From Lysobacter sp. BMK333-48F3 (GTDB lineage Bacteria > Pseudomonadota > Gammaproteobacteria > Xanthomonadales > Xanthomonadaceae): a stretch of DNA of 64,000 nucleotides. The position numbers and the translations under genes were made by a program. Below the pieces are notes generated by a model. It was not told the DNA's origin, ran no database searches, and worked only from the letters and a program-made list of their open reading frames with translations. The stretch is from NCBI RefSeq assembly GCF_019733395.1, contig NZ_JAIHOO010000001.1, forward strand, positions 3,348,501 through 3,412,500. The letters run 5' to 3'. Below are positions 3,950-29,385 of the stretch, in pieces; the stretch's first letter is position 1, and each line of letters begins with the position of its first letter.

Positions 3950-5596
<1,647 letters not shown>

Positions 5597-5697
5597 GCCG
5601 GACTCCATCGCGGGCAGTGCCCGAAGCCGTGCATGGTCGCCCAGGCCGCGTTAGCGGCGGGCGATGACCGGCGCCGCGGCGCGTCGCGGCCGCCGGC

Positions 5698-9443: not shown

Positions 9444-9714
9444 TCGAGAGCCCGCCGGCAAGGGGCGGCGCGGCCATCGTTGCCGCGTTTTCGCCAAAAC
9501 AAGCAAACTTATTCCGCAGATACTGCATGGGCCGGGTAGGGGGAACCCTGTCCGCCTGCGTTGTCACCTTCAGGGGGAAGTGAGCGACGCAGCGTATGCG
9601 CCCGTGTCCAGTCCGGGCCGCTATGGATCCACCTCTCCCTACACGGGTGCGCAACGCCGGTCGCGTTGGCCGCGTTGCGCTTAGCGCAAGCGTCAGCAAT
9701 GAGGGGCTAGGGGA

Positions 9715-13005: not shown

Positions 13006-13013
13006 CCGCGCTG

Positions 13014-13045
13014 CGCGCCGGGTCCGTTCGCGGACCCGGCGCGTT
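13014..13045 (+). terminator. Hairpin after first S8 peptidase
   Basis: A perfect 13-bp GC-rich stem with a TTCG loop starts eight bases after the stop codon. Only TT follows, so termination may be partial and allow read-through to the adhesin. Confidence 0.55.
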
Positions 13046-13144
13046 CCATCCGGCCGGGCCGAGCGCGGCCCGCGCCGACGCCACTTTCGCCGCCGCGCAC
13101 GATCACGGTCGCGCGGCGCGCACGACATCCTCCTGGGGGACAGT

Positions 13145-14413
13145 TTGAACATCACGCACAAGACCCTTCTCGCCGCCGCGCTCTCGCTGGCTTGCGCCTC
13201 GGCCTGGGCCGGCGAAGCCTGCCTGCTCGACGACGGCTTCGGCGGCACCACCACCGGCGGCGCCACCGCCAACGGCGGCAGCGCGCTGGCCTGCGGCCAG
13301 GGCGCGACCGCGGACGGCGATTTCGCCGTCGCCCAAGGCGCCGGCGCCACCGCCAGTGCGGTCGGCGCGGTCGCGGTCGGCGCAGGTTCCACCGCATCGG
13401 GCGACCAGAGTTCGGCGGTGGGCGCGGGCGCGACCGCCTCGGGCGCCAACGCCAGCGCGATCGGCGACAGCGCCACCGCCTCCGGCGAATTCTCCACCGC
13501 GAACGGTTCGGCCAGCACCGCCGGCGGGCGTTTCGCCACCGCCAGCGGCGCCGGCAGTACCGCCAGCGCCGACAACGCCACCGCGCTGGGCGCGAACAGC
13601 TCCGCCTCGGCGGTCAATTCGGTCGCGCTGGGCGCAAACTCGATCGCCGATCGCGCCAACACGGTATCGGTCGGCGCCGCCGGCGCCGAACGCCAGTTGG
13701 TCAACGTCGCCGCCGGCACCGCCGACACCGACGCGGCCAACGTGTTCCAGCTCAACACCCTGGCCGGCGCGCTCGGCGGCGGCGCCAGCTTCGCCGGCGG
13801 CGCGTTCACCGCGCCGACCTACTCGATCCAGGGCGGCAGCTATCGCGACGTCGGCTCGGCCTTCGCCGCGGTCGACGGCCGCCTGACCGATCTGTACGGC
13901 CGGGTCGGCGCCGGCGCCGCCAATTCGGTGACCTATACCGACGCTTCGCAGACCCAGGTCGCGCTGCAGGGCGCCGGCGGCACCCGCGTGTCCAACGTCG
14001 CCGCCGGCACCGCGCCCACCGATGCGGCCAACGTCGCGCAGGTGCAGAGCGGCGACGCCCAGACCCTGCGCAGCGCCAACGCCTACACCGATTCGCGCGT
14101 GACCCAGATGCTGGCCGCGCCGACCGAGGCGATCAACGAACTGCGCGACGACATGAACTGGCGTTTCAACAAGCAGGACCGCCGCATCGACAAGCTCGGC
14201 GCGATGACCTCGGCGATGGTGCAGATGTCGGCCAGCGCGGCCGGGCTGCGCACGCCGAACCGGGTGGCGGTCGGCGCCGGTTTCCAGGGCGGCCAGCAGG
14301 CCTTGTCGATCGGCTACCAGCGTGCGATCAGCGACCGCGCCACGGTGACCCTGGGCGGCGCGTTCAGCGATTCGGAAAGCTCGGCCGGCATCGGCGTGGG
14401 TTTCGGTTGGTGA
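13145..14413 (+). CDS. Short YadA-like trimeric autotransporter adhesin
   Basis: 422 residues from a TTG start preceded by a strong GGGGGA site. A Sec signal peptide ends near AWA (about 22). Residues about 45-180 are YadA-type head repeats with the period A-x-G-x-x-A-x-A-x-G. Two neck/stalk motifs of the form VAAGTxxTDAANVxQ occur at about 188-202 and 285-299. A short coiled coil (about 303-352) leads to a 70-residue YadA anchor ending in aromatic GFGW. Three chains form one 12-strand outer-membrane barrel (type Vc secretion) that displays the head outside the cell. It is small for the family. It lies between two paralogous secreted subtilases on the same strand. Confidence 0.9.
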   Translation: MNITHKTLLAAALSLACASAWAGEACLLDDGFGGTTTGGATANGGSALACGQGATADGDFAVAQGAGATASAVGAVAVGAGSTASGDQSSAVGAGATASGANASAIGDSATASGEFSTANGSASTAGGRFATASGAGSTASADNATALGANSSASAVNSVALGANSIADRANTVSVGAAGAERQLVNVAAGTADTDAANVFQLNTLAGALGGGASFAGGAFTAPTYSIQGGSYRDVGSAFAAVDGRLTDLYGRVGAGAANSVTYTDASQTQVALQGAGGTRVSNVAAGTAPTDAANVAQVQSGDAQTLRSANAYTDSRVTQMLAAPTEAINELRDDMNWRFNKQDRRIDKLGAMTSAMVQMSASAAGLRTPNRVAVGAGFQGGQQALSIGYQRAISDRATVTLGGAFSDSESSAGIGVGFGW

Positions 14414-14788: not shown

Positions 14789-17700
14789 ATGCCTAACGCA
14801 GTCAATCGATTGACGATCGCGATCAGCCTGATCGGGCTGGCCGCCATCGCCGGAGCCGCGATCCGCGGCCTGTCCGACGACACGCCGGCCGACGCCGGCG
14901 CGATCGGCGGCGCACCGTCCCCCAGCCGCATCGACAGCGGCCTGGAAACCCAGACCAGCCGCTACATCGTGCTGTACAAGGAAGCGCCGCTGGCCACCTA
15001 CGCCGGCGAGATCGCCAGCCTGCCGGCGCCGCAGCGCATGGCCGGCGCGCAGAACGCCAACAGCGCGGCCGACGGCGGCGCGCCCGGCCGGCTCGACGTG
15101 CGCAGCGCGCAGGCGCGCGGCTACGTGCGCCATCTCGATCGGGTCCAGCACGACCACGAGCGCGGCATCAACGCCCTGATCGGCCGGCCGCTGGCGATCG
15201 AACGGCGCATGCAGCACGCAGTCAACGGCGTGATCACCCGCATGACCCAGAACGAAGCCGCGCGCATCGCCAAGCTGCCCGGCGTGGAACTGGTCGAGGA
15301 GTACCGCGAATACGAGCAGGCCACCGACGTCGGTCCGGCGCTGATCGGCGCGCCGGGGCTGTGGAACGCCACCCCGACCCAGTACCGCGGCGAAGGCGTG
15401 GTGTTCGGCATCCTCGACTCGGGCATCAATTTCGGCAGCCCGGCGTTCGCCGCGATCGACGACACCGGCTACCAGCACGTCAATCCCTTCGGCAGCGGCA
15501 CCTACCTGGGCAGCTGCGCGCCCGGCGGCGTCGACGAAGGCCGCTGCAACGACAAGCTGATCGGCGGCTACGACTTCGTCTGCGGCGCGCCCGGCAATAC
15601 CTGCGGCGTGGCCGACATCCGCGAAGAACCCGGCTTCGGCGACACCAACGGCCACGGCAGCCATACCGCGTCGACCGCGGCCGGCAACGCCTGGGACGCC
15701 AACTACAAGGGCCGCACGGTGCGCATTTCCGGCGTCGCGCCGCACGCCAACATCATCGCCTACGACGTCTGCTACACCCGCATCTCCACCGGCCAGGGCC
15801 TGTGCCCGAACACCTCGGCGGTGGCCGCGGTCGACCAGGCGATCGCCGACGGCGTCGACGTCATCAACTACTCGATCGGCGGCGGCAGCCAGCCCTGGGG
15901 CGAGGCGGTGTCGCTGGCCTTCCTCAACGCCTCCGACGCCGGCATCTACGTCGCGACTTCGGCCGGCAACTCCGGTCCCGGCCCGAACACCATGGGCCAC
16001 CTGGAACCGTGGACCGGCTCGACCGCCGCCGCCCAGCACGGCCGCGGCACCTTCGCCTTCCTGTTGCAGGTCACCGGCCCGGGCACCGTGCCGCCGGCCC
16101 TGCAGGCGATCCAGCTGACCGAAGGCAGCGGCGGCGCCGCCTTCAACGCCAGCCTGCCGCCGACCACGCCGATCAAGGTCAGCGCCGGCATCGACACCGC
16201 GACCGACGGTTGCGCGGCGTTCGCGCCGGGCACGTTCCAGAACGCGATCGCGCTGATCCGCCGCGGCACCTGCAGCTTCTCGATCAAGGTCAACAACGCC
16301 GCGGCCGCCGGCGCGATCGGCGTGGTCATCGCCAACAACCAGCCGGGCGCGACCACGCCCAGCGTGCCGGGCACGACCATTCCGGCGTTCCTGGCCCTGC
16401 AGACCGACAGCGACGCGCTGCGCAACTTCGCCGCCGGCAACGGCAACACCACCACCGCCGCGATCAACTTCCCGCCGACGCCGATCCCGAACACGGCCGA
16501 TGCCTTGGCGGCGTTCAGTTCGCGCGGCCCCGCCGGCGACTTCAACCTGATCAAGCCCGACATCACCGCGCCGGGCGTGAGCGTGTTGGCGGTGCTGTCC
16601 GGCAGCACGATCAGCGGCAACGAGAATCTGGTCGGCCTGCTTAGCGGCACCTCGATGGCCTCGCCGCACCACGCCGGCGCCGCCGGTTTGTTGCGTCAGG
16701 CCAAGCCCGACTGGACCGCTGCGGAAATCAAGTCGGCGCTGATGATGACCGCTGAGCGCAAGGTCTATACCGAGGACGAAGTCACCTTGGCCGATCCGTT
16801 CGACGCCGGCGCCGGCCGGGTCCAGGTCGATCGCGCGCTGCGTGCCGGTCTGGTGCTCAACGAGACCACCGCCAACTACCTGGCCGCCGATCCGGCGACC
16901 GGCGGCCAGGTCGCGAGCCTGAACCTGGCCAGCCTGGCCCAGCGCGAATGCGCCCAGGCCTGCGTGTTCAAGCGCAGCTTCCGCGCCGCACAGGGCAAGC
17001 CCGGTTTGTGGGTGGCGCAGCTCAAGGGCGTCGACGGCATCGCCTTCCCGCCGGTGTTCCTGTCCCAGCCGGGCCGCACCCAGGACGTGACGGTGATCGT
17101 GCTGACCCATCAGTTGCCCAAGGACGGCGCCTGGCACTTCGGCGCGCTGCAGTTGGATCAGGTGCTCGGCGGCCCGTCGCCGCAGTTGCATCTGCCGGTC
17201 GCGGTCGCCGTGCCGCCGCCGCAGATCGAACTGCGCCCGGCGCAGGTCGCGCTGAGTCTGCCGGCCGGTACGCGCGGCTTCGCCGATTTCGCGATCGGCA
17301 ACCTCAGCGCCTCGGCCCTGCAGTTCCAGATCGACAACACCGGCGAAGGTTCGCGCAGTGTGGTCGACACCAACTCCGACGGCGTCAGCAGCGGCTTCCG
17401 CAGCACCGTCTACACCGACCCGGCCTCGGCCGGCGGCCTGCCGGCGCAGTTCTCCAGCGACGACTTCGTGCTCAGCGACAGCACCCGCCTGTCGCGGCTG
17501 TTTGCCGAGGGCTTCGTCTCCAGCGGCGCCGCGCTGGCCAGCACCGCGACCAGCCTGACCTGGAGCGTGTTCGCCGACAACGGCGGTAACCCGGCCAGCA
17601 ACCCGCTCGCCGGTTCGGCCTTGTGGACCTACACGGCGGCGCCGAACGCCGCCGGGGTCCGGGTGGATGGGGCGAACATCACCCTCGACCTGGCCGCGGC

Positions 17701-18100
17701 CGGGCAGAACGTGCAGTTGCCGGCCGGCCGTTACTGGCTGGTGGTGCATGCGCGCACCAGCTTCGCCAACCGCTGGGTCTGGTACGCCTCCAACAGCGGC
17801 GACAACCAGTTCCGCACCATCGCCCCCTCGGTCGGCGGCGCCGGCAGCTGGAGCGCCGGCGCGGGCTTCGCCGGACTGGCCTACGCCATCCAGGGCGCCA
17901 GCGCTTGCGGCGCACCGTGGATCGGCGCGCCGGTGCGCGCCTTCGGCACCGTCCCGGGCCGCGGCGAAGTCGCCAACCGCGTGCGCATCGACGCGCGCGG
18001 GCTGAGCGCAGGCAGCCACATCGGTTACGTCTGCGTCGCCAGCGACGATCCGGTCCAGCCGAAGGTGGCGTTGCGGGTGGCGCTGACGGTGACCGACTGA
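14789..18100 (+). CDS. Secreted S8 subtilisin-like serine peptidase, paralogue 2
   Basis: 1103 residues, colinear with the first peptidase over its whole length. Signal segment (about 8-26), I9-type propeptide, catalytic Asp210 (GILDSGIN), His289 (NGHGSH), oxyanion Asn394 (SAGNSG) and Ser622 (SGTSMASPHH), with a PA domain between His and Ser (about 440-550). The C-terminal beta domains match those of the paralogue, including the final YVCVAS strand. The catalytic core is the best conserved part and the propeptide linker the least. A strong terminator follows. The pair most likely arose by tandem duplication around the adhesin gene. Confidence 0.92.
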   Translation: MPNAVNRLTIAISLIGLAAIAGAAIRGLSDDTPADAGAIGGAPSPSRIDSGLETQTSRYIVLYKEAPLATYAGEIASLPAPQRMAGAQNANSAADGGAPGRLDVRSAQARGYVRHLDRVQHDHERGINALIGRPLAIERRMQHAVNGVITRMTQNEAARIAKLPGVELVEEYREYEQATDVGPALIGAPGLWNATPTQYRGEGVVFGILDSGINFGSPAFAAIDDTGYQHVNPFGSGTYLGSCAPGGVDEGRCNDKLIGGYDFVCGAPGNTCGVADIREEPGFGDTNGHGSHTASTAAGNAWDANYKGRTVRISGVAPHANIIAYDVCYTRISTGQGLCPNTSAVAAVDQAIADGVDVINYSIGGGSQPWGEAVSLAFLNASDAGIYVATSAGNSGPGPNTMGHLEPWTGSTAAAQHGRGTFAFLLQVTGPGTVPPALQAIQLTEGSGGAAFNASLPPTTPIKVSAGIDTATDGCAAFAPGTFQNAIALIRRGTCSFSIKVNNAAAAGAIGVVIANNQPGATTPSVPGTTIPAFLALQTDSDALRNFAAGNGNTTTAAINFPPTPIPNTADALAAFSSRGPAGDFNLIKPDITAPGVSVLAVLSGSTISGNENLVGLLSGTSMASPHHAGAAGLLRQAKPDWTAAEIKSALMMTAERKVYTEDEVTLADPFDAGAGRVQVDRALRAGLVLNETTANYLAADPATGGQVASLNLASLAQRECAQACVFKRSFRAAQGKPGLWVAQLKGVDGIAFPPVFLSQPGRTQDVTVIVLTHQLPKDGAWHFGALQLDQVLGGPSPQLHLPVAVAVPPPQIELRPAQVALSLPAGTRGFADFAIGNLSASALQFQIDNTGEGSRSVVDTNSDGVSSGFRSTVYTDPASAGGLPAQFSSDDFVLSDSTRLSRLFAEGFVSSGAALASTATSLTWSVFADNGGNPASNPLAGSALWTYTAAPNAAGVRVDGANITLDLAAAGQNVQLPAGRYWLVVHARTSFANRWVWYASNSGDNQFRTIAPSVGGAGSWSAGAGFAGLAYAIQGASACGAPWIGAPVRAFGTVPGRGEVANRVRIDARGLSAGSHIGYVCVASDDPVQPKVALRVALTVTD

Positions 18101-18237: not shown

Positions 18238-18343
18238 CGAGACTTGCATAGCACATTTGTTCGGGAGAAAGATCGCTCAAGGATCGGGCGATGGCGCCCG
18301 AGCGCGATCGCAGCCGCAACGGCTGCTGGACAGGGATGGAATC

Positions 18344-21300
18344 ATGCAGGCTTCCCCGACGCACAAGGACCGCGGCTTCTGGTTGCGGCGCGCCTTGCCT
18401 TGGCTGGCGTTCTTCGGCCTGGCGCTCGTATTGGGCTCGGTGCGCGCCCAAGGCACGGACTGGCCGAACGAGTACGCCAAACGGGTGCGTTCGACCGAGC
18501 ACGTCTCGCCGTTGAGCGACGAGGCCTTCGGCGACAAGGTCAACCTGTTCAACGGCACGGTCCGCTTCAGCCACGATCTGGTGTCGCTGCCGGGCAACAG
18601 CGCCTTGCCGGTCGCGCTGGGGATCTTCTACGACCCGCACGACATCACCGGCGGGCCGCTCAACGGCTACTGGGACCTCGACCTGCCTTACGTGGGCGCG
18701 GTGCACCACAGCAAAAGCGCGGAAGCGAACGGCTGGGTGGCGATCCCGCCCAACGTCAACAACGGCTATGTCGAATTCGACCGCTCGATTTTCTGGAGCG
18801 GCAACCGCCTGACCATCAACGGCGGCGGGGGCGGCGATCTGCTGACCATCCCGGACGACCCCAAGCGGGTCAAACCGCAGAACTCGGTCGGCTACAAGTT
18901 CGCCACCAAGGACGGCTGGTTCTTCGCCGAACTGCCCAGCGTGCAGAACGGTCCCGGCAAGGGCCTGGTGGGCTATGCGCCGGACGGGACCAAGTACACC
19001 TTCGACTGGCTGGTGTACCGGCGCTATTCCTCGATCAGCCATCCCTGGGGCTATACCGTTCCCAACGCGTTGCTGCATCGCTACAAGCTCAAGCTCTATG
19101 TCAGCAAGATCGAGGACCGGTTCGGCAACTGGGTCAGGTACGACTGGGAGTACGACCACCCCACGCGCATCTACGCCAACGACGGTCGCGAGATCGTCAT
19201 GACCTACTCCAGCCCGGCGCCCTACCTGTTCGACGGCAACTACCAGACCAACATCAAGACCGCGACCGCGAACGGCCGCACCTGGACGTTCGACTACGCC
19301 AACGCCTATGGCGGCAACGTGCGCAATCCCGACGGCTCGGAATGGAAGTTCGACGGGCCGGCGGTGTTCGACATGCCGCGCCTGGACGTGGCCGAGTATC
19401 TGATCAACCCCGACAACAACCAGCACTATCCGCAGAAGAACGTTCCCTGTTCCCCGGGCAGCATCCTCGCCGATACCCGTTCCAAGGTACGCATTGTCCA
19501 TCCGTCGGGAGCGGCCGCCGAATACCTGTTCAAGTCGATGCGGCACGGCCGTACCAACGTGCCCTACATCTGCGAAACCGGCAACGACGAAGGCAGCAGC
19601 GGGCGCAACCGTTACTCGACCTTCCACGACACCTGGTCGCTGATCGAAAAGCGCATCAGCGGCGCCGGCATTGCCGAGAAGGTCTACCGCTACGGCTACG
19701 AAGGCCTGGGCGAGGGCTACGAAACCCAGGACGAGAATCGCTGGGACATCGGCCCGGGCTGGAACGCCAAGTACGCGCCGCCGGCGCCGAACTACAAGAC
19801 GGTGACGGTGACCGAGCCGGACGGCACCCAGAACCTGCACACCTTCGGTCGCGACCGCGATCTCAACGAAGGCCAGTTGTTCCGGGTCGAGACGCGCAAG
19901 GCCGGCACGACCTATCGCAGCGTCAGCAACAGCTACGTGAGCGATTCGGAAGCCGCCGGCATGCCGTTCCCGTCCTGGATGGGGTCCAACGGCGACGAGT
20001 TCGCCGACCGGCTGCCGAATTCGAACCGGCCGCTGAAGTCGACGGTCACCGCCCAGGACGGCGCGACCTTCAACCGCAGCATCAACAGCTTCGACGCCCA
20101 GGCGCGGCCCTTGAGCGTGGCCAAGTGGTCCTCGGGCAGTCATACCGACCGCGGCCGCACCGACGCCACCGAGTACTACGACGACCTGGGCCTGTGGGTG
20201 CTGGGGCAGGTGCGCAAGGAGTCCAATACGGACACCGGCTGGGTGATGTCGCAGACGGACTACAATGCCCAGGCCTTGCCATCGCAGCGCTTCGCCTTCG
20301 GCAAGCCGATCGAGAGCTACGAGTACAACCCCGACGGCACGCTGGCGGCGCTGACCGACGGCGCCGGACGCAAGACCCGGTTGGAAAACTGGAAGCGCGG
20401 CGTGCCGCAGTCGATCCGTTACGCCGATCAGAACGGCGATTCGGCGGTAGTGGACGACAACGGCTGGCTGACCTCGATCACCGACGAGAACGGCTACACC
20501 ACCGGCTATGCCTACGACGCGATGGGCCGGTTGCAGACGGTCAGCTATCCCGGCGCCGACAGCAACGCCTGGGAGCCGATGCAGTTGCGCCTGGAACAGC
20601 GCGGGCAGGCCGAATACGGCCTGCCCGGCGGGCATTGGCGGCAGAGCGTGACCGTCGGGCGACGCAACAAGCATGTGTACCTGGATGCGATGTTCCGGCC
20701 GGTGCTGACCCACGAATTCGATGGCAACGACTTCGCCGGCACGCTCAAGGCCGGTGCCGCGGCGTTCGACGAAGACAACCGGGTCGTGTTCGCGAGCTAT
20801 CCCAGCCGTCAGCCGGCGGGCTCTACGCAGGGCACCCGCACCGCCTACGACGCGCTCGGGCGGGTCACTTCGGTGCAGCAGGACAGCGAGTTGGGCGTGC
20901 TGACCACGACCACCGAATACCTGCCGCAGTTCCTGACCCGGGTCACGAACCCGCGCCAGCAGCAGACCTGGTACAGCTACTTCGTGCTCGATCAGCCCAG
21001 CTACGACACTTTGACCGGCATTACCCATCCCGGTGGTCGCCTGACCTGGCTGTATCGCGACCTGCTCGGCGCGATCACCAGCCTGCGCCGTACCGACAGC
21101 GCCGAATCGGTGCAACTGCTGCGCCAGTACGGCTACGACATCCATCACCAGTTGTGCAAAACGGTCGAGCCTGAAACCGGCGCGACGGTGACCGCCTACA
21201 CCGCGACCGGAAAAGTGGCCTGGTCGGCCAGCGGCCTGAGCCTGCCCGATACCGGCAACTGCAATCACATGGAGGCCTATCAGTCCGGCCGTCGGGTCGA

Positions 21301-23674
21301 CCGCAGCTACGACGCGCGCGACCGTCTGTACCAGTTGTCGTTCCCGGACGGCGCCGGCAACCAGACCTGGAGCTATTACCCCGACGGCCAGGTCCAGCAG
21401 GTGACGACCCACAACGGCGCGACCGGCGACAGCGTGGTCAACAGCTACGAGTACAACAAGCGGCGTCTGCCGACCCGCGAGCGCATGCAGTTCGACGCGA
21501 TCGACTGGGCGTTCGGCTCGACCTACGACAACGAGGGCGCGCTGGCCAGCCACAGCTATCCGAACGGGCAGGCGGTCGCTTACGCGCCGAACGGGCTGGG
21601 CCAGCCCACCCAGGCCGGCAGCTACGCCACCGGCGTTGCCTACCATCCCAATGGCGGCATGTCGGGCTTCGCCTACGGTAACGGCATCGTCCACAGCCTG
21701 CAGCAGAACCTGCGCGGTCTGCCCGAGCGCAGTCGCGACGCCGGCAGCGCGACGGTGCTCGACGACAGCTACGACTACGACGCGGTCGGCAACGTCGCCG
21801 CGATCAGCGACGGATTGCCTGGCGCGCGCGGCGATCGCAGTCTCGGCTACGACGGCGCCGACCGCCTGACCAGCGCGGTCTCGCCGATGTTCGGCCCGGC
21901 CAGCTACAGCTACGACGCCTTCGACAACCTGCGCACGGTCGAGGTGGCCGGGCGCAAGCACACCTACTACTACGACGGCGCCAACCGCCTGACCAACGTG
22001 CAGCTGACCGACACCGGCCAGTCGGTGATCGGCCTGGGTTACGACGTCCAGGGCAATCTGCAGAACAAGAACGGCAAGGAGTTCCGTTTCGATTTCGGCA
22101 ACCGCCTGCGCGAGGCGGTCGGTGCGGAGAGCTATCGTTACGACGCTCATGGCCGGCGCGTGCTCGCGACCAGCCCCAGTCTCGGCAGCATCGTTTCGAT
22201 GTACGACCAGGGCGGCGCGCTGCGCTACCAACGCGACTACCGCAAAGAGAAGGACGTCGCCTATTTCAGCCTCAACGGCAGCCTGGTCGCGCGCGCCAGC
22301 ACCGCGATCGCGCCCGATGTGCCGGTACTGACCGCGCCGAGTTTCGTCTCCGCAGGCAGCTTCACGGTCGGCTGGAGCCAGACCACCGCCCAGGGCAGCT
22401 ACGAGTTGCAGGAGCAGGCCGGCGGCGGCGCCTGGCAGGCGCTGTACAGCGGCGGCGAGCGCAGCCGCACCGTGTCCGGCCGTAGCGACGGCAGCTACGG
22501 CTATCGCGTCCGGGCCTGCAACGCGGTCGGCTGCGGCGGCTGGAGCGCAACCGCGACCGTGGTCGTGCAACGTCCGCCGTCCTCGGCGCCATCGCTGTCG
22601 GCGCCGGCTACCGCGGTCAACGGCCAGTACGGCGTCAGCTGGACCTCGGCCGGCGGCGCCACCGATTACCTGCTGGAGGAAAGCGCCGGCGGCGCGGCAT
22701 GGACCACGGCTTATGCCGGCGCGGATCTGTCCAAGGCCTTCAGCGGCCGTGCGGGTGGCAGCTACAGCTACCGGGTCAAGGGCTGCAACCCGGCCGGTTG
22801 CGGACCGGTGTCGAACACCGCCAGCGTGCAGGTGATCTACCCGCCGGCTTCGGCGCCGTCGATCAGCGCGCCCGCGCAGAGCACCCAGGGCAGCTTCAGC
22901 GTCGGCTGGACCGCGGTCGCCGGCGCCGCGGGCTACCAGCTCGAACAGAACGCGCTGGGGCAGGGCTGGGCGCTGATCCAGGACGGCGGCGCCACCAGCC
23001 GCACGATCTACGGCGGTTCCACCGGCAACTACGCCTACCGGGTGCGGGCCTGCAACGCCGCCGGCTGCGGGCCGACCTCGGGCGAGGCCAACGTCTACGT
23101 GATCGGCCCGCCGACCGCGGCGCCGGGCATCAGCGTGCCGGCCAGCAGCAACAACGGCACCTTCTGGGTCGGCTGGAACGGCGTCGACAACGCGACCCGC
23201 TATCAGCTCGAAGAGAGCGCCGGCGGCGGGGCCTGGACCCTGATCTACGAGGCCAACACCGGCGGCGCGACGATCTGGGGACGCTGGGACGGCACCTACG
23301 GCTATCGCGTGCGCGGCTGCAACGATGCCGGTTGCGGTCCGTACTCCTCGCCGGGCTTCATCACCGTCGACCACCCGCCAGCGGCGCCGTCGATCAACCT
23401 GGCCGACTGGCTACGCAACACCCTGCGCGGCCGCGTGGTCCTGGACACCTGCACGATCCGCTGGAACGCGGTCGCCAAGGCGAGCAGCTACCAGCTCCAG
23501 TCCACCGACAACGGCGCCCAGCTGTACAGCGGCTCGGCCACCCAGATCCAGTCCGGCTCCAGCGGCCAGTACTGCGCCTACAACTACGCCGTCCGCGCCT
23601 GCGGCAGCGGCGGCTGCTCAGCCTGGTCGAGCCCGCCGTATCCGGCGACTCGGCGGACTGAGGCGATGGATTGA
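18344..23674 (+). CDS. Secreted RHS/YD-repeat shell protein with C-terminal FN3-like repeats
   Basis: 1776 residues. The start follows GGGATGGA. A Sec signal peptide ends near VRA (about 36). The N-terminal region (about 45-350) resembles the pre-shell domain of RHS/TcC proteins. YD repeats run from about 390 to 1320 and form a hollow beta shell. The shell stops at YFSLNGSLVARAS. Then come five FN3-like repeats of about 85-90 residues (from about 1325), each ending in a YRVRACNxxGCG-type strand; the last is more divergent. The expected RHS core (YIHTDALGSP onward) is missing and is instead encoded by the next gene. The last 574 bp are duplicated downstream. No T6SS genes (vgrG, PAAR, eagR) are nearby, so export is probably by Sec. 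Confidence 0.88.
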   Translation: MQASPTHKDRGFWLRRALPWLAFFGLALVLGSVRAQGTDWPNEYAKRVRSTEHVSPLSDEAFGDKVNLFNGTVRFSHDLVSLPGNSALPVALGIFYDPHDITGGPLNGYWDLDLPYVGAVHHSKSAEANGWVAIPPNVNNGYVEFDRSIFWSGNRLTINGGGGGDLLTIPDDPKRVKPQNSVGYKFATKDGWFFAELPSVQNGPGKGLVGYAPDGTKYTFDWLVYRRYSSISHPWGYTVPNALLHRYKLKLYVSKIEDRFGNWVRYDWEYDHPTRIYANDGREIVMTYSSPAPYLFDGNYQTNIKTATANGRTWTFDYANAYGGNVRNPDGSEWKFDGPAVFDMPRLDVAEYLINPDNNQHYPQKNVPCSPGSILADTRSKVRIVHPSGAAAEYLFKSMRHGRTNVPYICETGNDEGSSGRNRYSTFHDTWSLIEKRISGAGIAEKVYRYGYEGLGEGYETQDENRWDIGPGWNAKYAPPAPNYKTVTVTEPDGTQNLHTFGRDRDLNEGQLFRVETRKAGTTYRSVSNSYVSDSEAAGMPFPSWMGSNGDEFADRLPNSNRPLKSTVTAQDGATFNRSINSFDAQARPLSVAKWSSGSHTDRGRTDATEYYDDLGLWVLGQVRKESNTDTGWVMSQTDYNAQALPSQRFAFGKPIESYEYNPDGTLAALTDGAGRKTRLENWKRGVPQSIRYADQNGDSAVVDDNGWLTSITDENGYTTGYAYDAMGRLQTVSYPGADSNAWEPMQLRLEQRGQAEYGLPGGHWRQSVTVGRRNKHVYLDAMFRPVLTHEFDGNDFAGTLKAGAAAFDEDNRVVFASYPSRQPAGSTQGTRTAYDALGRVTSVQQDSELGVLTTTTEYLPQFLTRVTNPRQQQTWYSYFVLDQPSYDTLTGITHPGGRLTWLYRDLLGAITSLRRTDSAESVQLLRQYGYDIHHQLCKTVEPETGATVTAYTATGKVAWSASGLSLPDTGNCNHMEAYQSGRRVDRSYDARDRLYQLSFPDGAGNQTWSYYPDGQVQQVTTHNGATGDSVVNSYEYNKRRLPTRERMQFDAIDWAFGSTYDNEGALASHSYPNGQAVAYAPNGLGQPTQAGSYATGVAYHPNGGMSGFAYGNGIVHSLQQNLRGLPERSRDAGSATVLDDSYDYDAVGNVAAISDGLPGARGDRSLGYDGADRLTSAVSPMFGPASYSYDAFDNLRTVEVAGRKHTYYYDGANRLTNVQLTDTGQSVIGLGYDVQGNLQNKNGKEFRFDFGNRLREAVGAESYRYDAHGRRVLATSPSLGSIVSMYDQGGALRYQRDYRKEKDVAYFSLNGSLVARASTAIAPDVPVLTAPSFVSAGSFTVGWSQTTAQGSYELQEQAGGGAWQALYSGGERSRTVSGRSDGSYGYRVRACNAVGCGGWSATATVVVQRPPSSAPSLSAPATAVNGQYGVSWTSAGGATDYLLEESAGGAAWTTAYAGADLSKAFSGRAGGSYSYRVKGCNPAGCGPVSNTASVQVIYPPASAPSISAPAQSTQGSFSVGWTAVAGAAGYQLEQNALGQGWALIQDGGATSRTIYGGSTGNYAYRVRACNAAGCGPTSGEANVYVIGPPTAAPGISVPASSNNGTFWVGWNGVDNATRYQLEESAGGGAWTLIYEANTGGATIWGRWDGTYGYRVRGCNDAGCGPYSSPGFITVDHPPAAPSINLADWLRNTLRGRVVLDTCTIRWNAVAKASSYQLQSTDNGAQLYSGSATQIQSGSSGQYCAYNYAVRACGSGGCSAWSSPPYPATRRTEAMD
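23099..23672 (+). repeat. Direct repeat copy A (FN3 tail of the RHS shell)
   Basis: 574 bp, matching 25020-25593 with only three substitutions by direct reading (one changes Asn to Thr, two are silent). It covers the fourth and fifth FN3 repeats of the shell and ends two bases into the stop codon. Confidence 0.95.
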
Positions 23675-23689
23675 AGGGGGAGCGATGAC

Positions 23690-24664
23690 ATGAAATGGAT
23701 CTCAATGTTCGCCTGTTCGACGCTGCTTATCGCCTCACCGAGTGTCAAGGCGCAGACCGTAGTCGAATACATTCATACCGATGCGCTCGGCAGTCCGGTG
23801 GCGGTGACCGATGCCGGCCAGAACACAATCGAGCGGAGCGAGTACGAACCTTATGGCCAATTGCTGAATCGACCTGCGGCCGACGGGCCGGGATATACGG
23901 GGCATGTGGTTGATACGCAGACCGGGCTTAGCTACATGCAACAGCGTTACTACGACGCCGAGTTAGGCAGGTTCTTGTCCGTGGATCCTGTAGCAGCCAG
24001 CGGGAGGGAGGGGGGTAACTTCAACCGTTATCGGTATGCAGACGGCAATCCTTATAAGTTTATCGATCCGGACGGACGAGCAGCGTGTCCTACTGGTACG
24101 CGGGTTTGCTATCAGTCGATTAAAAGCGAGACTGGTACGGCACAGCAGCCTGGGCCAAATGCGAGAACTCAAGCGAAAGATGCGCAAGCAGTTCAGGCCC
24201 ATAAGGCCGGCCGACTCTCCGACGGTACGAAGCTGAATGTCAACAAGAAGACCACTGAAGAGCAAGGCATCAAGGTCGGGGCTGACGGAACCTCATCCAA
24301 TCCATTCCAGAAAATATGTTGGTCCTGCAGCGATGGTGATTCTGGAACAGGGGGTAGATATAATGTCGCTGGGCTGATCGGAGACGATAGTGCCGGCCAT
24401 ACCCATCCGGGTGAAATTAGTGAGATTCCCGGTCGGGGTGATGCTGGGCTTGTCAATGTGACCGGGCAGACCAATTATGTTTTTTCTCGTGCGGGTGTTT
24501 TTGCTATAGAAAAAACAGGGGTTGGTTACAGGGTCAGACAGATCGAAGGAGCAGCGTTGCGTGGGGAGGCTCGCCGTAACTTGATCAATCAGATTGATGC
24601 ATGGAACCGGTCCGACGGTGCATCCAACTCGGGAGGGGTGTCATGTTCTTCAAGCTCTTGTTGA
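23690..24664 (+). CDS. RHS core tip protein 1 with candidate JAB/DUF4329-like toxin domain
   Basis: 324 residues, 15 bp after the shell stop, with its own GGGGGAG site. A Sec signal peptide (about 1-21) is followed by the RHS-associated core: YIHTDALGSPVAVTD (28-41), YTGHVVDTQTGLSYMQQRYYD (69-89), FLSVDP and FIDPDGR (124-130). The latter is the border after which RHS proteins become variable. The variable part (131-324) has no firm match. HTHP (237-240) and Asp251 recall the metal site of JAB/DUF4329-type toxins, though the usual Ser is not in place. It is more A+T-rich than the shell. The 3' end overlaps the next gene by 22 bp, as in toxin/immunity pairs. Confidence 0.75.
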   Translation: MKWISMFACSTLLIASPSVKAQTVVEYIHTDALGSPVAVTDAGQNTIERSEYEPYGQLLNRPAADGPGYTGHVVDTQTGLSYMQQRYYDAELGRFLSVDPVAASGREGGNFNRYRYADGNPYKFIDPDGRAACPTGTRVCYQSIKSETGTAQQPGPNARTQAKDAQAVQAHKAGRLSDGTKLNVNKKTTEEQGIKVGADGTSSNPFQKICWSCSDGDSGTGGRYNVAGLIGDDSAGHTHPGEISEIPGRGDAGLVNVTGQTNYVFSRAGVFAIEKTGVGYRVRQIEGAALRGEARRNLINQIDAWNRSDGASNSGGVSCSSSSC

Positions 24665-25017
24665 GCTTTGGTGTGGCTTTGTCATGTGCTTGCCTATCAT
24701 CGTGCACGTTGCAACAGCCTGTGCTAACGAATCCGAAGGCGATTGAAGTGAAAGGAATTCTTGAGCTTTTTCCTGGAGGGTACGGCGCTGCCTCGGTACG
24801 CGTGATCGATGGAAAATGCTATGACTTGGCGCTGCCGAAGTCGGTTATGAGAGAACATGATCGGTGGAGTGAGCGGGTTGTAATTTTGTCAGGCACTACT
24901 GTTCTCCGCCCTCGCTTTCCCGATGCGGCATGGTTTGACATCAAGGACCGTCGCATCGAGGCTGGCGGTTGTTCTGACAGCGTGATTTATGTGGATACGA
25001 TTAAGGTCGTAAAATAA
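24643..25017 (+). CDS. Small lipoprotein, candidate immunity protein for tip 1
   Basis: 124 residues. The ATG follows GGGAGGGG and lies inside the end of the tip 1 gene. A lipoprotein signal ends LSSC. The mature part (about 105 residues) has two or three further cysteines and looks like a small beta domain; no family was recognised. Position, overlap and low G+C are typical of an immunity gene. A lipid-anchored periplasmic location would fit a toxin that acts in, or passes through, the periplasm. Function is inferred from context only. Confidence 0.6.
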   Translation: MFFKLLLSFGVALSCACLSSCTLQQPVLTNPKAIEVKGILELFPGGYGAASVRVIDGKCYDLALPKSVMREHDRWSERVVILSGTTVLRPRFPDAAWFDIKDRRIEAGGCSDSVIYVDTIKVVK

Positions 25018-25019
25018 AG

Positions 25020-25593
25020 GTGATCGGCCCGCCGACCGCGGCGCCGGGCATCAGCGTGCCGGCCAGCAGCAACAACGGCACCTTCTGGGTCGGCTGGAAC
25101 GGCGTCGACACCGCGACCCGCTATCAGCTCGAAGAGAGCGCCGGCGGCGGCGCCTGGACCCTGATCTACGAGGCCAACACCGGCGGCGCGACGATCTGGG
25201 GACGCTGGGACGGCACCTACGGCTATCGCGTGCGCGGCTGCAACGATGCCGGTTGCGGTCCGTACTCCTCGCCGGGCTTCATCACCGTCGACCACCCGCC
25301 GGCGGCGCCGTCGATCAACCTGGCCGACTGGCTACGCAACACCCTGCGCGGCCGCGTGGTCCTGGACACCTGCACGATCCGCTGGAACGCGGTCGCCAAG
25401 GCGAGCAGCTACCAGCTCCAGTCCACCGACAACGGCGCCCAGCTGTACAGCGGCTCGGCCACCCAGATCCAGTCCGGCTCCAGCGGCCAGTACTGCGCCT
25501 ACAACTACGCCGTCCGCGCCTGCGGCAGCGGCGGCTGCTCAGCCTGGTCGAGCCCGCCGTATCCGGCGACTCGGCGGACTGAGGCGATGGATT
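25020..25593 (+). repeat. Direct repeat copy B (FN3 tail)
   Basis: 574 bp, offset by 1921 bp from copy A. Both copies end at the same point relative to a following tip gene (tip start 15 and 12 bp after the stop), so recombination between them would keep the junction intact. Confidence 0.95.
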
Positions 25594-25595
25594 AA
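25020..25595 (+). pseudogene. Orphan copy of the RHS shell FN3 tail
   Basis: The frame is open for 191 codons from a GTG that directly follows the immunity gene's stop, and it encodes the last two FN3 repeats of the shell with one residue changed. It has no signal peptide, no convincing ribosome binding site and no shell. I read it as a displaced 3' fragment that carries its own tip gene, comparable to orphan rhs/cdiA cassettes, rather than as a working gene. Its near-identity to the parent suggests recent duplication or gene conversion. Confidence 0.75.
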
Positions 25596-25607
25596 GAGGA
25601 CGACGAT

Positions 25608-26483
25608 ATGAAATTGATCTTGAACCTCATCGCGGCAGCGCTGCTGAGCTTTGTCCCGTTTGGGGCAAAAGCGGAGACTGCAGTCGAATACATCCATACG
25701 GATGCGCTCGGCAGCCTCGTGGCGGTGACCGACGTCAATCAAAATGTTACGGAACGTAGCGAGTACGAGCCGTATGGTCGACTCTTGAATCCCCCAGGGG
25801 GCGACGGCCCTGGCTATACCGGTCATGTAAATGACACTGCGACCGGTTTGGTCTACATGCAGCAGCGCTATTACGACTCAGATATAGGTCGTTTCCTGTC
25901 AATCGACCCAGTCGGTGCAAACTCAAAGACGGGAGGAAACTTCAATCGCTACTGGTATGCGAATGACAACCCCTACCGCTTCATTGATCCTGATGGGCGA
26001 TATGTGTGTACGGGCGATAAGGGGAATTGCAAAAGATTCGATGTGGCAATCGGCATGGCGGCGAGAGCGGCCGTTGACCCGAAGCTGTCGTCTTCGCAGA
26101 GAGCTGCTCTCAGCAAAGCCGTTGCGTTCTATGGTAAGGCGGGTGTAGAAAATGTAAAAATCTCCTTTGGTAGTCTTAAGGGAGATTACGCGAACATCAA
26201 TACGGATAGGACGGGTCGCGGTACTGTTACGTTTGATCTTGCGGCTATTTCCGGAAGGGATTCTGCGAGAGCATCAGGCCTCGTCAATGGGCTAGCTATG
26301 AGGGCGGTTCATGAGGGCGACCATGGGGTGCGAATAGTCGAAAAAGGGTTTCCGTCATCGAGAGCTGAGAGATTTGAAAGGGAGCAGCACGGCTATCGGG
26401 CTGAAGGCTATTACCAGAAGGCCACTGGATACATGCAAAATGGAAACAACATATGGACTCCTTGGGGGCGGGCGATGGAATAA
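25608..26483 (+). CDS. RHS core tip protein 2 with candidate zincin toxin domain
   Basis: 291 residues after GAGGA. A Sec signal peptide (about 1-22) precedes an RHS core very similar in protein to tip 1 (YIHTDALGS, YTGHVNDTATGLVYMQQRYYD, FLSIDP, FIDPDGR at about 125-131). The DNA has diverged. The variable part from about 132 is unrelated to tip 1. It contains AVHEGDHGV, an HExxH zinc-metallopeptidase motif (235-239), followed by a Glu-rich helix (EREQHGYRAE, Glu266 a possible third ligand). A gluzincin-like protease or a zincin-fold toxin is the best guess. It lies behind the orphan FN3 tail and ahead of two OmpA-like lipoprotein genes. Confidence 0.72.
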   Translation: MKLILNLIAAALLSFVPFGAKAETAVEYIHTDALGSLVAVTDVNQNVTERSEYEPYGRLLNPPGGDGPGYTGHVNDTATGLVYMQQRYYDSDIGRFLSIDPVGANSKTGGNFNRYWYANDNPYRFIDPDGRYVCTGDKGNCKRFDVAIGMAARAAVDPKLSSSQRAALSKAVAFYGKAGVENVKISFGSLKGDYANINTDRTGRGTVTFDLAAISGRDSARASGLVNGLAMRAVHEGDHGVRIVEKGFPSSRAERFEREQHGYRAEGYYQKATGYMQNGNNIWTPWGRAME

Positions 26484-26559
26484 GTGAGGAGGCGGTGAAC
26501 GGGCGAGCTAAGATGTCTGTGATGTCGTCTTGCGCTAAATCTAGCGAAGGGAGTTGCCG

Positions 26560-27060
26560 ATGATTGGTTTCCATTGGTATTCGCGGTGCATGGCCATGTG
26601 CTTGATTCTCCTGATGTCTGCATGTGCAGGTGTGGATACGGGAGAGGGGCAGGCGATGGGTGGTGCTCGGAATATTGTATTTTCCGATCCGGTTGACTTT
26701 ATCGGCGTAAATTTTAAAACGGCTAGACCTAGGCAGGGTGAAGATTTTTCTGTTGCTCTGTTGAGTTCGTCGGCGGATCGGGAGGCTCTTAAGCAAGATT
26801 TGCATCTGCTTGGAAAAATGCCATCGGACATTCCGCTCAGAGTGGTTGGGTTCACGGATTCCAGGGAGTGTGCTGGTGAAGAATGCCGTGAATTGTCATT
26901 GCGCCGGGCCAAAGCCATAACTGATTGGCTAATTGGCATGGGTATTCCGAGTTCCAGGCTCGCCGCGCCACAGGGGTTTGGCGCCGAAAGGCCCATAGAC
27001 GACAACGGAACAGAGAAGGGGCGTGCTCGTAACAGACGTGCTTATGTTAGTTACGATTGA
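26560..27060 (+). CDS. OmpA-like domain lipoprotein A
   Basis: 166 residues. The ATG follows AAGGGAG. A lipoprotein signal ends MSAC (Cys22). The C-terminal half is an OmpA/MotB-type peptidoglycan-binding fold: VVGFTDSREC, CRELSLRRAKAITDWL, and NGTEKGRARNRR at the end. Two cysteines in the GFTD loop (ECAGEEC) probably form a disulphide. The N-terminal third is not recognised. Such proteins tether the envelope to peptidoglycan. Directly behind an RHS tip, it could also be the immunity protein. Clearly A+T-rich for this genome. Homologous to the next gene. Confidence 0.7.
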   Translation: MIGFHWYSRCMAMCLILLMSACAGVDTGEGQAMGGARNIVFSDPVDFIGVNFKTARPRQGEDFSVALLSSSADREALKQDLHLLGKMPSDIPLRVVGFTDSRECAGEECRELSLRRAKAITDWLIGMGIPSSRLAAPQGFGAERPIDDNGTEKGRARNRRAYVSYD

Positions 27061-27121
27061 TGCGACGCTTCTCGCGTCGACAAGATGCCGGGTAGGCGAC
27101 GAAGCTGTCTGGCGGATTGAA

Positions 27122-27598
27122 GTGATATGCAGGGTGATTCTGCTATCGCTTCTATCGGTCGCGTTTGGCTCCTCATGCGGGCGGGCAACTCAGATCAGAA
27201 CAGATGGAGCTTCGTTGTTCTCTGGGCTGGAGATGGTTCCCTTGCACATGAAGTCCGGGCATCCAATGGACGACGAAGGCATCGAGACGGCGCTGGCCGA
27301 GCCCGAGGAGTTCTATCGAAGAGCGCTCCAATTGAATGCTGAGACTATCAAGGCTACGCCCGGGATGAGCTTCGAGGTGGTCGGTTTCACCGACGCAATC
27401 GAGTGCAGCGGAAACTGTCGGGAGCTGTCCGCTAGACGAGCCAGGATCGCGTATGACTGGCTACTTGCCGCAGGGGTGTCTCCATCCTCACTGAGAACTC
27501 CTGTCGGACATGGGAGCGACCTGCCGGTAGGCGACAATGGAACGGACGAAGGACGGTCGCGGAATCGACGCGTAGAAATTAATCCAGTTGCTGATTAG
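27122..27598 (+). CDS. OmpA-like domain exported protein B, paralogue of the previous gene
   Basis: 158 residues from a GTG after GGATTGAA; the frame is open further upstream, so the start is uncertain. A hydrophobic segment (VILLSLLSVAFG) ends SSC, a weak lipobox. The C-terminal OmpA-like region matches its neighbour: VVGFTDAIEC, CRELSARRARIAYDWL, and NGTDEGRSRNRRVE. It has the same cysteine pair in the GFTD loop. The N-terminal region is different. The two genes look like a tandem duplication that has since diverged. Confidence 0.62.
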   Translation: MICRVILLSLLSVAFGSSCGRATQIRTDGASLFSGLEMVPLHMKSGHPMDDEGIETALAEPEEFYRRALQLNAETIKATPGMSFEVVGFTDAIECSGNCRELSARRARIAYDWLLAAGVSPSSLRTPVGHGSDLPVGDNGTDEGRSRNRRVEINPVAD

Positions 27599-27733: not shown

Positions 27734-28465
27734 ATGAAGATTGTCGCTAAGGCCGTTGGCGGTTCTGGCAAGAACAGGTTGGCATCCCTGGAGATAACGA
27801 CCGACCGTAAGGATGATAAGTTCTCCGATATGCGGGTGGATTCTTTCCGGATTGAGGCGAGTACGCTGCAGTCGTGTGCTTTTACTGGGATACATGCCAA
27901 GCAAGCTTGCTTTGGTTCCGGTCCGAAGATGTCTTATCTCAATGAGTGTGTTTTCGAACGCTGTGATTTGAGACTGTCGGTAGCAGGAAGAGCTAGTCTG
28001 ACAGAGTGTCGGTTCGTTGAATGCACTCTCCGGGAAGTCATCGCTTTGGATCTGGAATTGATCAACTGCGTTTTCGAGAGGACGGTGATCAATGAAGCCA
28101 CATTTCATGGTGCGGTGCCGGCGGAGGATGCGCAGTTGGTCGGGCGTTGGCGGAATGAGTTCTGCGGCAATGATTTCTCGTCGGCTACTTTGCGGGACGT
28201 TGGGTTCAATACGGGAATCTGTGTTGCTGCGCAAACACTTCCCGTTGGCGACGATTATCTATACATAGCAGACACAGCGGCAGCTGCGGCTTGGCTCAGG
28301 GCCGCTCCAGTGCCTCCAGAGCCGGCGGCAGCCAGGCAGCAAAAGACTCTGCTCGCTCTTCTGGATTACGACGCATCGACTGGGCAGAAGGATCAGCTTT
28401 TGGTCGGGCCATTCCCTGAGGGGCTGCGAGAAGCGGCTGCGACGTTCGGGTCGTTGCTGGCCTGA
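27734..28465 (+). CDS. Pentapeptide-repeat-like protein
   Basis: 243 residues, no signal peptide, so cytoplasmic. Residues about 35-125 follow a loose five-residue rhythm with Cys, Phe or Leu at the core position (STLQSCAFTGI, LNECVFERCDL, LTECRFVECTL, LINCVFERTVI), as in pentapeptide-repeat right-handed beta-helices. The C-terminal 110 residues are not recognised. In polymorphic toxin loci such proteins can serve as immunity factors; here that is inference from position. G+C is lower than in the core genes. Confidence 0.55.
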   Translation: MKIVAKAVGGSGKNRLASLEITTDRKDDKFSDMRVDSFRIEASTLQSCAFTGIHAKQACFGSGPKMSYLNECVFERCDLRLSVAGRASLTECRFVECTLREVIALDLELINCVFERTVINEATFHGAVPAEDAQLVGRWRNEFCGNDFSSATLRDVGFNTGICVAAQTLPVGDDYLYIADTAAAAAWLRAAPVPPEPAAARQQKTLLALLDYDASTGQKDQLLVGPFPEGLREAAATFGSLLA

Positions 28466-28524
28466 CTCAGGATGAAAGGCAGTATCGACTCGTTTGGAGT
28501 GGGGCATTACACCTTCAAAGGCCA

Positions 28525-28962
28525 ATGGTTCTGCAGATGAGGGAAATAATCAGCGTTCATGTCGAGAAATCATTGGTGTTCGTCGCCGGTTCTATGGCGT
28601 GCGAGCTTCCGGCCCTGGTTGGTAATGAGCTGGCGACTGCGACCGACTCCTGCGTTGCTGTGGGAACGCTCAATGGCGCCGATGGTCTGACGAAGATCGT
28701 GCTTTCTTCGCGGCCAGCTGAGACGGGGATGCTTGCTTACTCGGGGCGATTGAGTTCGCCCGAAGGTATGGTGTCGGTGTTCAACATCAGGTTGGAAGAA
28801 CTGCTCAGCCTGGAGGTCGGTTCGGATGAGGTCGATATCGCGATCTTCGTCAACGATGCGATCGAACCCGATCGGGTCGAAGTGGTCGTATCGTGCCAAG
28901 GCCGCGGGTTGTTGGTTCCAGATCGAATCGTTCGCCGCAGCGAGGGCGGCAGCGCGGAATAA
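28525..28962 (+). CDS. Hypothetical cytoplasmic protein
   Basis: 145 residues, no signal peptide and no cysteine-rich or membrane segment. A second in-frame ATG four codons later is possible. Alternating hydrophobic residues suggest a beta-rich domain (ISVHVEKSLVFVAGS, VDIAIFVNDAIEPDRVEVVVS). It follows the pentapeptide-repeat-like gene by 59 bp and may be co-transcribed. I do not recognise a family. An orphan immunity protein is possible. Confidence 0.5.
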   Translation: MVLQMREIISVHVEKSLVFVAGSMACELPALVGNELATATDSCVAVGTLNGADGLTKIVLSSRPAETGMLAYSGRLSSPEGMVSVFNIRLEELLSLEVGSDEVDIAIFVNDAIEPDRVEVVVSCQGRGLLVPDRIVRRSEGGSAE

Positions 28963-29025
28963 GCAAGTGGCAGGCAGCTCCGAGGTCGGTGCTGCCGCTA
29001 TCCATGCTCTCAGGGAGGTCGAGCT

Positions 29026-29385
29026 ATGAAGGCGAAAATGCTGTGGAGTGGCGCAATGTACATGTTCGCAGCGGGCGCCCTCGCTTCCGACGACCAGGGC
29101 TACCGGAAACTGTCCGGTAGCTACGCGATTACTTCAGCGCACCTGGTCGATCCGGGGCCGGCGCAAAAGCGCGACCGGGCCGTGTTCTTTGTCGAGTCGG
29201 ACGCTGCCAAGGATCTGTACCAGGCGATGAAGGGGAAAGCTGTCAGGGACCCTTGCTCCGACGAGCTGACGACCAAGACTGCAGGTGGCTTGGCGTGTTC
29301 GAAAGAGGTTGGCCGGGAGGTGTATACATGCGCTTTCGGGGTGAGGCTCGAAAGTGGGACGTTGATCGGGGCCAAGGTTTGTTGA
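29026..29385 (+). CDS. Small secreted cysteine-containing protein
   Basis: 119 residues with a strong GGGAGG site. A signal peptide ends near ALA (about 20). The mature part (about 99 residues) has four cysteines near 78, 91, 102 and 119, the last at the C-terminus, probably two disulphides. The final segment (YTCAFGVRLESGTLIGAKVC) is beta-like. No family was recognised. It is the last plus-strand gene of the accessory block. Confidence 0.55.
   Translation: MKAKMLWSGAMYMFAAGALASDDQGYRKLSGSYAITSAHLVDPGPAQKRDRAVFFVESDAAKDLYQAMKGKAVRDPCSDELTTKTAGGLACSKEVGREVYTCAFGVRLESGTLIGAKVC

What the first reader, a model, noticed from the sequence alone, without database searches (positions are those of the whole stretch)
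23099..26483. RHS tip-swapping cassette: 574-bp near-identical FN3 tails flanking a toxin-tip/immunity pair
Seen: the last 574 bp of the RHS shell gene recur 1921 bp downstream with three mismatches. Each copy is followed within 12-15 bp by a tip gene with its own signal peptide and an RHS core, but with unrelated C-terminal domains. Tip 1 is followed by a lipoprotein gene. Known: rhs and cdiA loci exchange C-terminal toxin/immunity modules with orphan copies by homologous recombination. Inference: recombination between the two tails would excise tip 1 and its immunity gene as a 1921-bp circle and put tip 2 behind the shell without disturbing the junction. What is new compared with the classic model is that the homology lies in an FN3 tail outside the RHS core and the swapped unit is a separate gene.
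Basis: partly seen in the sequence, partly recalled or inferred. Interest (0 to 1): 0.82.

Follow-up and report, generated by a model that had tools for sequence, protein, structure and literature searches.

The report
Split Rhs toxin with displaced tip
A Lysobacter genome carries a bacterial toxin whose protective shell and toxic tip are two separate genes, and a copy of the end of the shell gene marks where a newly arrived tip seems to have pushed an older tip aside.

Summary
Each copy is followed after 15 or 12 nt by a tip gene with leader peptide and RHS core but an unrelated C-terminal domain. In all 46 fetched shell loci with a visible downstream core, shell and tip are separate genes, so the separate swapped gene is the rule in this family, not a feature of this locus. 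The closest relative has one tail followed directly by a tip2-type gene between the same neighbours. So tip1, its lipoprotein gene and a tail copy most likely entered and displaced tip2. Tail copies recur elsewhere, with a near replica in another genus (cut by a contig end). Between related loci, however, similarity usually falls inside the RHS core, as in classic rhs. Reverse excision is plausible but unobserved, and perhaps unnecessary: tip2 keeps its own start and leader, and another Lysobacter has whole tips far from its shell, so one shell might take several tips in trans, as in Tc toxins. New variant of a known kind.

The parts
18257..23674 (+). RHS shell gene (likely start ATG 18344; signal-peptide-like N-terminus, RHS/YD repeats, at least four FN3-like repeats and a final domain, ends ...ATRRTEAMD stop); no RHS core in this gene
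   Evidence: (RHS_repeat, YD_repeat)
23099..23672 (+). tail copy 1: last 574 nt of the shell gene; differs from L032 at all three mismatches between the copies
23690..24664 (+). tip1: leader peptide + RHS core (ends DPDGR near 24079) + JAMM/MPN-like C-terminal domain (HTHP motif); likely newcomer
24643..25017 (+). imm1: 124-aa lipoprotein, putative immunity to tip1; homologues directly follow tip1-type domains in three other genera
25020..25593 (+). tail copy 2: orphan copy of the shell 3' end, GC 0.71 among genes of GC 0.50-0.57, begins 2 nt after the imm1 stop; has the base of L032 at 3 of 3 mismatches
25608..26483 (+). tip2: leader peptide + RHS core + zincin-like C-terminal domain (HEGDH); likely displaced resident, complete gene with its own start
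26554..27060 (+). OmpA-domain lipoprotein, putative immunity to tip2 (homologues follow tip2-type domains in L034 and L152)
27023..27598 (+). second OmpA-domain protein, perhaps a further immunity-type gene (64% identical to one of the OmpA genes in the array of L032)

Best explanation
This is a two-gene (split) Rhs polymorphic toxin: a secreted RHS/FN3 shell gene, and exchangeable tip genes that each carry their own leader peptide, the RHS core and a variable toxin domain, followed by an immunity gene (here a lipoprotein). The 574-nt repeat is the footprint of a tip exchange: a DNA piece [tail - tip1 - imm1] recombined with the resident tail and pushed the resident tip2 and its OmpA-type genes downstream, leaving a second tail in front of tip2. 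Shown by sequence: the repeat, the split in every locus examined that shows a core, C-terminal variability, the one-tail arrangement in the closest relative, recurrent second tails, conserved toxin-immunity neighbours. Inferred: polarity of the exchange, toxin and immunity activity, export, loading of the tip into the shell, insertion by homologous recombination at the tail (Campbell-type or one-sided), and possible reversion by recA-type recombination, which would delete tip1 and imm1.
Confidence: 0.7

Rival explanations
1. The tail repeat is an active switch: cells in a culture interconvert by excising tip1-imm1 as a 1921-bp circle, so that the shell is followed by tip1 or tip2.
For: 574 nt at 99.5% identity is ample for homologous recombination (general knowledge); the predicted one-tail product is the arrangement seen in L032; a published precedent in Salmonella used 522 bp at 95% (passages of PMC3967940).
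Against: No junction or circle seen; one assembly only; excision loses imm1 while siblings still make tip1, a cost discussed in PMC4927057 (passages); tip2 already has its own start and leader, so excision may not be required for its expression.
Confidence: 0.3
2. Local tandem duplication followed by replacement: shell tail, tip and immunity gene were duplicated in place and one tip copy then diverged or was replaced.
For: Tail copies are more alike within a genome than between genomes in several lineages; both tips share the same architecture.
Against: tip1 and tip2 cores are only 75% identical in protein, and 67% in DNA over leader+core, right beside a 99.5% tail, and C-terminal domains and immunity genes are unrelated, so the tips cannot be recent duplicates; replacement of a whole tip from outside would still be needed.
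Confidence: 0.15
3. tail2 and tip2 are dead remnants: tip2 is not made and only its immunity genes matter (fossil array).
For: L037 keeps a decayed tail and an imm1 homologue with the tip lost; L088 has several relics; 7 of 10 imm1 homologues outside this genome lie in genomes where no tip1-type domain was found (at most 8 candidates a genome were scored).
Against: tip2 is an intact gene with ATG, GAGG-type ribosome-binding stretch, leader peptide and a complete domain with the HExxH motif; intact standalone tips exist in G016 without a shell nearby.
Confidence: 0.25

Closest known systems
Orphan rhs-CT/rhsI modules (Salmonella LT2 rhs; PMC3967940 and PMC3150448, passages seen)
   Same: Second toxin/immunity module downstream of the main one, preceded by a copy of upstream rhs sequence (522 bp, 95% in Salmonella; 574 bp, 99.5% here); recombination could load the second toxin.
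   Different: Classic orphans usually lack start and export signals; tip2 is a complete gene with its own start and leader, and the repeated piece is the end of a separate shell gene (FN3-like repeats) rather than the core.
Tc (ABC) toxins, TcB + TcC, including orphan yenC3 of Yersinia entomophaga (PMC11067744, passages seen)
   Same: RHS cage made from two genes; the second carries core and variable toxin; TcC genes at other loci can pair with one TcB.
   Different: Here the tip contributes only the roughly 107-aa core plus toxin and has its own leader peptide; no SpvB domain found in the shell; the tips are followed by immunity-type genes, suggesting antibacterial use.
Orphan immunity genes downstream of Rhs (Serratia rhs1; PMC10539506, passages seen)
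   Same: Immunity-type genes without their toxin trail the active pair, as in L037 and perhaps the OmpA arrays.
   Different: In L037 the orphan immunity gene is still attached to a decayed copy of the shell tail.
CDI orphan cdiA-CT/cdiI arrays (PMC4927057 and PMC3150448, passages seen)
   Same: Displaced 3' ends with toxin/immunity pairs in tandem behind the active gene.
   Different: Different delivery protein; no separate tip gene.
Tox-JAB and Tox-MPTase domains of RHS toxins, some Sec-exported (PMC3482391, table passages seen)
   Same: HxH...D JAMM-type and HExxH metallopeptidase toxins at the end of RHS proteins.
   Different: No Pfam family matched either C-terminal domain.

Membership tests
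Rhs polymorphic toxin | RHS/YD repeats in the delivery protein | tested here: met
   PF05593 E 1e-25 and TIGR01643 in the shell
Rhs polymorphic toxin | Conserved RHS core ending in a DPxG-type motif, followed by an unrelated domain in relatives | tested here: met
   TIGR03696 in both tips; D126 and G129 invariant in 49 tips; 34 C-terminal clusters of 49
Rhs polymorphic toxin | Cognate immunity gene directly downstream | tested here: met
   by gene neighbourhood only, protection not shown: 3 of 3 strong tip1-domain homologues outside have an imm1 homologue next door; a fourth, weak match (G010) has none
Rhs polymorphic toxin | Autoproteolytic release of the toxin inside the cage | not testable with these tools
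   motif conserved; cleavage not shown
Rhs polymorphic toxin | Shell, core and toxin in one polypeptide (usual layout) | tested here: not met
   46 of 46 loci with a visible core: separate genes
T6SS-delivered Rhs effector | PAAR-type N-terminus | tested here: not met
   no such domain in the shell at E up to 0.1; a crude signal peptide instead
Tc toxin TcB/TcC | RHS cage in two genes, core and toxin in the second | tested here: met
   gene layout only; assembly not shown
Tc toxin TcB/TcC | SpvB/TcdB N-terminal domains in the B component (recalled) | tested here: not met
   Pfam scan of the shell shows only RHS_repeat and ChitinaseA_N
Tc toxin TcB/TcC | TcA pore subunit in the genome | not tested
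   no search made
Orphan rhs-CT module | Copy of upstream rhs sequence before the second toxin | tested here: met
   tail2, 574 nt, 99.5%
Orphan rhs-CT module | Toxin fragment usually without start and export signals | tested here: not met
   tip2 has ATG, GAGG stretch and leader-like start
JAMM/MPN fold (tip1 C-terminal domain) | Fold and HxH...D metal motif | tested here: inconclusive
Zincin (tip2 C-terminal domain) | HExxH on a zincin fold | tested here: met

The most novel reading that the evidence does not exclude
Lysobacter and its family use a modular two-gene Rhs weapon in which one exported shell can be loaded in trans with any of several independently exported tips, linked or unlinked, so the toxin repertoire grows by adding whole tip genes and needs no gene fusion or switching; the FN3 tail would be the end of the shell that meets the tip and, occasionally, the homology by which tips are added.
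Probability: 0.4. Interest if true: 0.72.

Novelty: new variant of a known kind. Interest (0 to 1): 0.55.

Why it matters
It offers a simple answer to the puzzle of why bacteria keep displaced toxin modules: if the tip is its own exported gene, a displaced tip need not be silent. It also makes testable whether an antibacterial Rhs cage can be assembled from two separately exported proteins, as the Tc cage is from two genes, and gives a set of paired shells and tips with natural swaps for mapping the shell-tip contact.

Tried and rejected
Considered and rejected: assembly duplication (copies differ at 3 sites, other DNA between them); gene split by a chance frameshift (the split recurs in 46 of 46 loci with a visible core); tips as recent duplicates (cores 75% identical in protein); the S8 protease as part of the system (found beside the shell in L032, but not in the 2.6-3.7 kb held upstream of the shells of L033-L037).

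Led nowhere: plasmid tblastn gave RHS cores under 60% identity only. The genome-contig scan returned 2 loci, both of contigs already in hand by their lengths. The promoter and terminator scan gave nothing beyond its shuffles. Foldseek against PDB with the tip1 model gave no match at E 0.001 or better. A class-wide search (369 genomes) with the tail showed, outside the family, no near-full-length tail except in G541, in a 3010-codon frame; no RHS core was seen there before the contig end. Paper searches that could have shown a split Rhs with leader-bearing tips (open-access library only; one search returned no paper) listed none that I recognised as describing one; most listed papers were seen only as titles and abstract starts. 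Same-species strains were not available; P0049 (tip2) is listed on 2 contigs and P0001 (tip1) on 1, which may hint at a strain without tip1, but I could not reach that contig.
Full report
OBSERVATION. The repeat is real and exactly where stated: 23099-23672 against 25020-25593, 574 nt, three mismatches, offset 1921. No third copy was found in the 5.2-Mb genome. Shell stop to tip1 ATG is 15 nt, tail2 stop to tip2 ATG 12 nt. Both tips begin with a leader-like hydrophobic stretch and carry the RHS core; after the DPDGR that ends the core they fall in different clusters. imm1, a 124-aa lipoprotein, overlaps the end of tip1 and stops 2 nt before tail2. Composition shows the mosaic: shell GC 0.67 and tail2 0.71, but tips, imm1 and the OmpA genes 0.50-0.57.

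THE SPLIT IS THE RULE IN THE FAMILY. The genus genomes held (20 including this one) gave six further loci in five genomes (fetched). A search of 395 genomes of the family with the tail alignment matched 83, many by single FN3-like repeats. I fetched 40 loci of 37 genomes from the top of that list (near-full-length matches, E up to 1.8e-29), leaving out three such places (one in G390 at a contig end, one in G257, one in G258); the rest of the 83 genomes were not examined. Of the 47 loci examined with the window, 46 show an RHS core downstream, and in all 46 it lies in a separate frame, 60-165 nt after the shell stop; L119 shows none. Of 50 full cores, 49 had a leader-like start by a crude test (44 SP, 5 lipoprotein-like, 1 unclear). 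With the same freedom 64 of 940 internal shell stretches passed, but 471 of 1000 shuffled leaders also passed, so hydrophobic composition carries much of that signal; 42 of 44 shells passed too, with some of the printed calls plainly inside the mature protein. The next gene had a leader or lipobox in 38 of 50 cases, with a start choice that favours leaders; some of the others look cytoplasmic. The 49 tips with a usable C-terminal domain fall into 34 clusters, 28 of them singletons, whereas all cores match one another. Pfam names TseH, Tox-GHH, Ntox24, HNH and DUF6973, each in one of the 49. C-terminal GC is lower than that of the shell end in 44 of 45 loci. This is a polymorphic toxin system whose chassis and toxin-bearing part are two genes. 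The names Lysobacter and Xanthomonas come from record titles and protein names.

WHAT HAPPENED IN THE WINDOW. The closest relative at this locus, L032 (G001; its tip reads the same as P0019, named from Lysobacter antibioticus), has the same S8 gene upstream and the same GGDEF gene downstream (79 and 80% identity), one tail, and directly behind it a tip whose core is 86% identical to tip2 and 80% to tip1. Its leader+core DNA is 82% identical to tip2 and 72% to tip1; at all three tail mismatches tail2 has the base of L032. More distant outgroups are mixed: at 23190 and 23380 none of the five has tail1's base, at 23230 L034 has it. The shell of L032 has a frame break in its FN3 part. The simplest reading is that [tail-tip1-imm1] arrived and displaced tip2. 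The sharp left edge of tail2, right after imm1, fits either a circle that integrated by one crossover in the tail or a one-sided homologous insertion; this is inference.

RECURRENCE. Self-comparison of the 47 loci found downstream copies (at least 100 nt, 70%) of the last 900 nt of the shell in 6 (window, L037, L088, L101, L110, L118), of the next 900 nt in 3 of 45, then 2 of 44, 1 of 44, 0 of 44 and 0 of 27; upstream flanks gave 1 in all bins together. L118, in another genus, repeats the window's plan: shell, tip, lipoprotein, then a copy of at least 1082 nt at 99.4% that leads into the start of a second tip; it is cut by the contig end, so an assembly effect is not excluded there. L110 has a 720-nt copy at 95% and a second tip. 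L037 has a decayed copy followed directly by an imm1 homologue, the tip lost. L101 is weak (164 nt, 74%) and L088 has only relics. Left edges differ between loci. In L037, L110 and L118 copies within a genome are 90-99.4% identical, while the same pieces are at most 73-84% identical to the other genomes compared.

One search lists 35 locus pairs with shell bodies at least 75% identical. In 24 of the 26 pairs at 84% or more, the first half of the core is 84-98% identical (73 and 76% in the other two), the tail 73-92%, the second half of the core 60-82% and the toxin domain 46-56%, except in one pair (L104/L112) that shares its toxin domain (80%). The short leader between tail and core varies (52-93%). 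Many pairs share loci, so they are not independent. The usual boundary is thus in the core, as in classic rhs; the tail breakpoint seen here is a variant.

TIPS IN TRANS. Lysobacter G016 carries, besides its shell locus, two complete tips with immunity-type genes at distant sites, with no shell match in the 19.5 kb fetched around each (L150, L151). With tip2's own start and leader, this suggests that a tip need not sit behind the shell. The precedent is the orphan TcC of Yersinia entomophaga, which is expressed together with TcB and joins it (PMC11067744, passages). This remains a hypothesis: no expression or binding data exist here.

COMPARISON. Switching between main and orphan Rhs toxins through about 0.5 kb of homology is known (PMC3967940, passages), and displacement into orphan arrays is known for CDI and Rhs (PMC4927057 and PMC3150448, passages). 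New relative to these is the two-gene architecture with independently exported tips, which my searches of the open-access library did not turn up. Hence: new variant of a known kind, moderately interesting.

Noticed in passing
L150 9461-10465 (+); L151 8848-9825 (-): Two complete standalone tips with OmpA/lipoprotein genes in G016, with no shell match in the stretches fetched
   Followed up: partly
L032, FN3 part of the shell: The shell gene of G001 is read in two frames, a frame break in the FN3 part
   Followed up: no
L183 oriented 5562-6404; also P0018, P0022, P0026: Mini-tips: leader, only the last part of the RHS core, then the tip1-type domain
   Followed up: no
L088, oriented 9198-14077: Series of four short relics of shell end or tip leader, with small lipoprotein-like genes between them
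   Followed up: partly
G000:C1:391245-393203: A 253-codon RHS-core frame about 1.7 kb behind a core in a 2289-codon Rhs frame in the window's own genome, looks like a classic orphan
   Followed up: no
P0122 and P0023, P0044, P0047, P0093, P0144 (Lysobacter sp. CA199): One strain with several tips and a stand-alone tail protein, a good candidate for an array; its contigs could not be reached
   Followed up: no
window 13145-14413 and 14789-18100: A possible YadA-like head protein (by eye) and a secreted-type subtilase (Peptidase_S8) upstream of the shell; of the six genus loci only L032 shows the subtilase in the flank held
   Followed up: partly
window 27734-29385: Pentapeptide-repeat gene and two small genes of unknown role and below-average GC behind the OmpA genes, possibly further displaced cargo
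   Followed up: no
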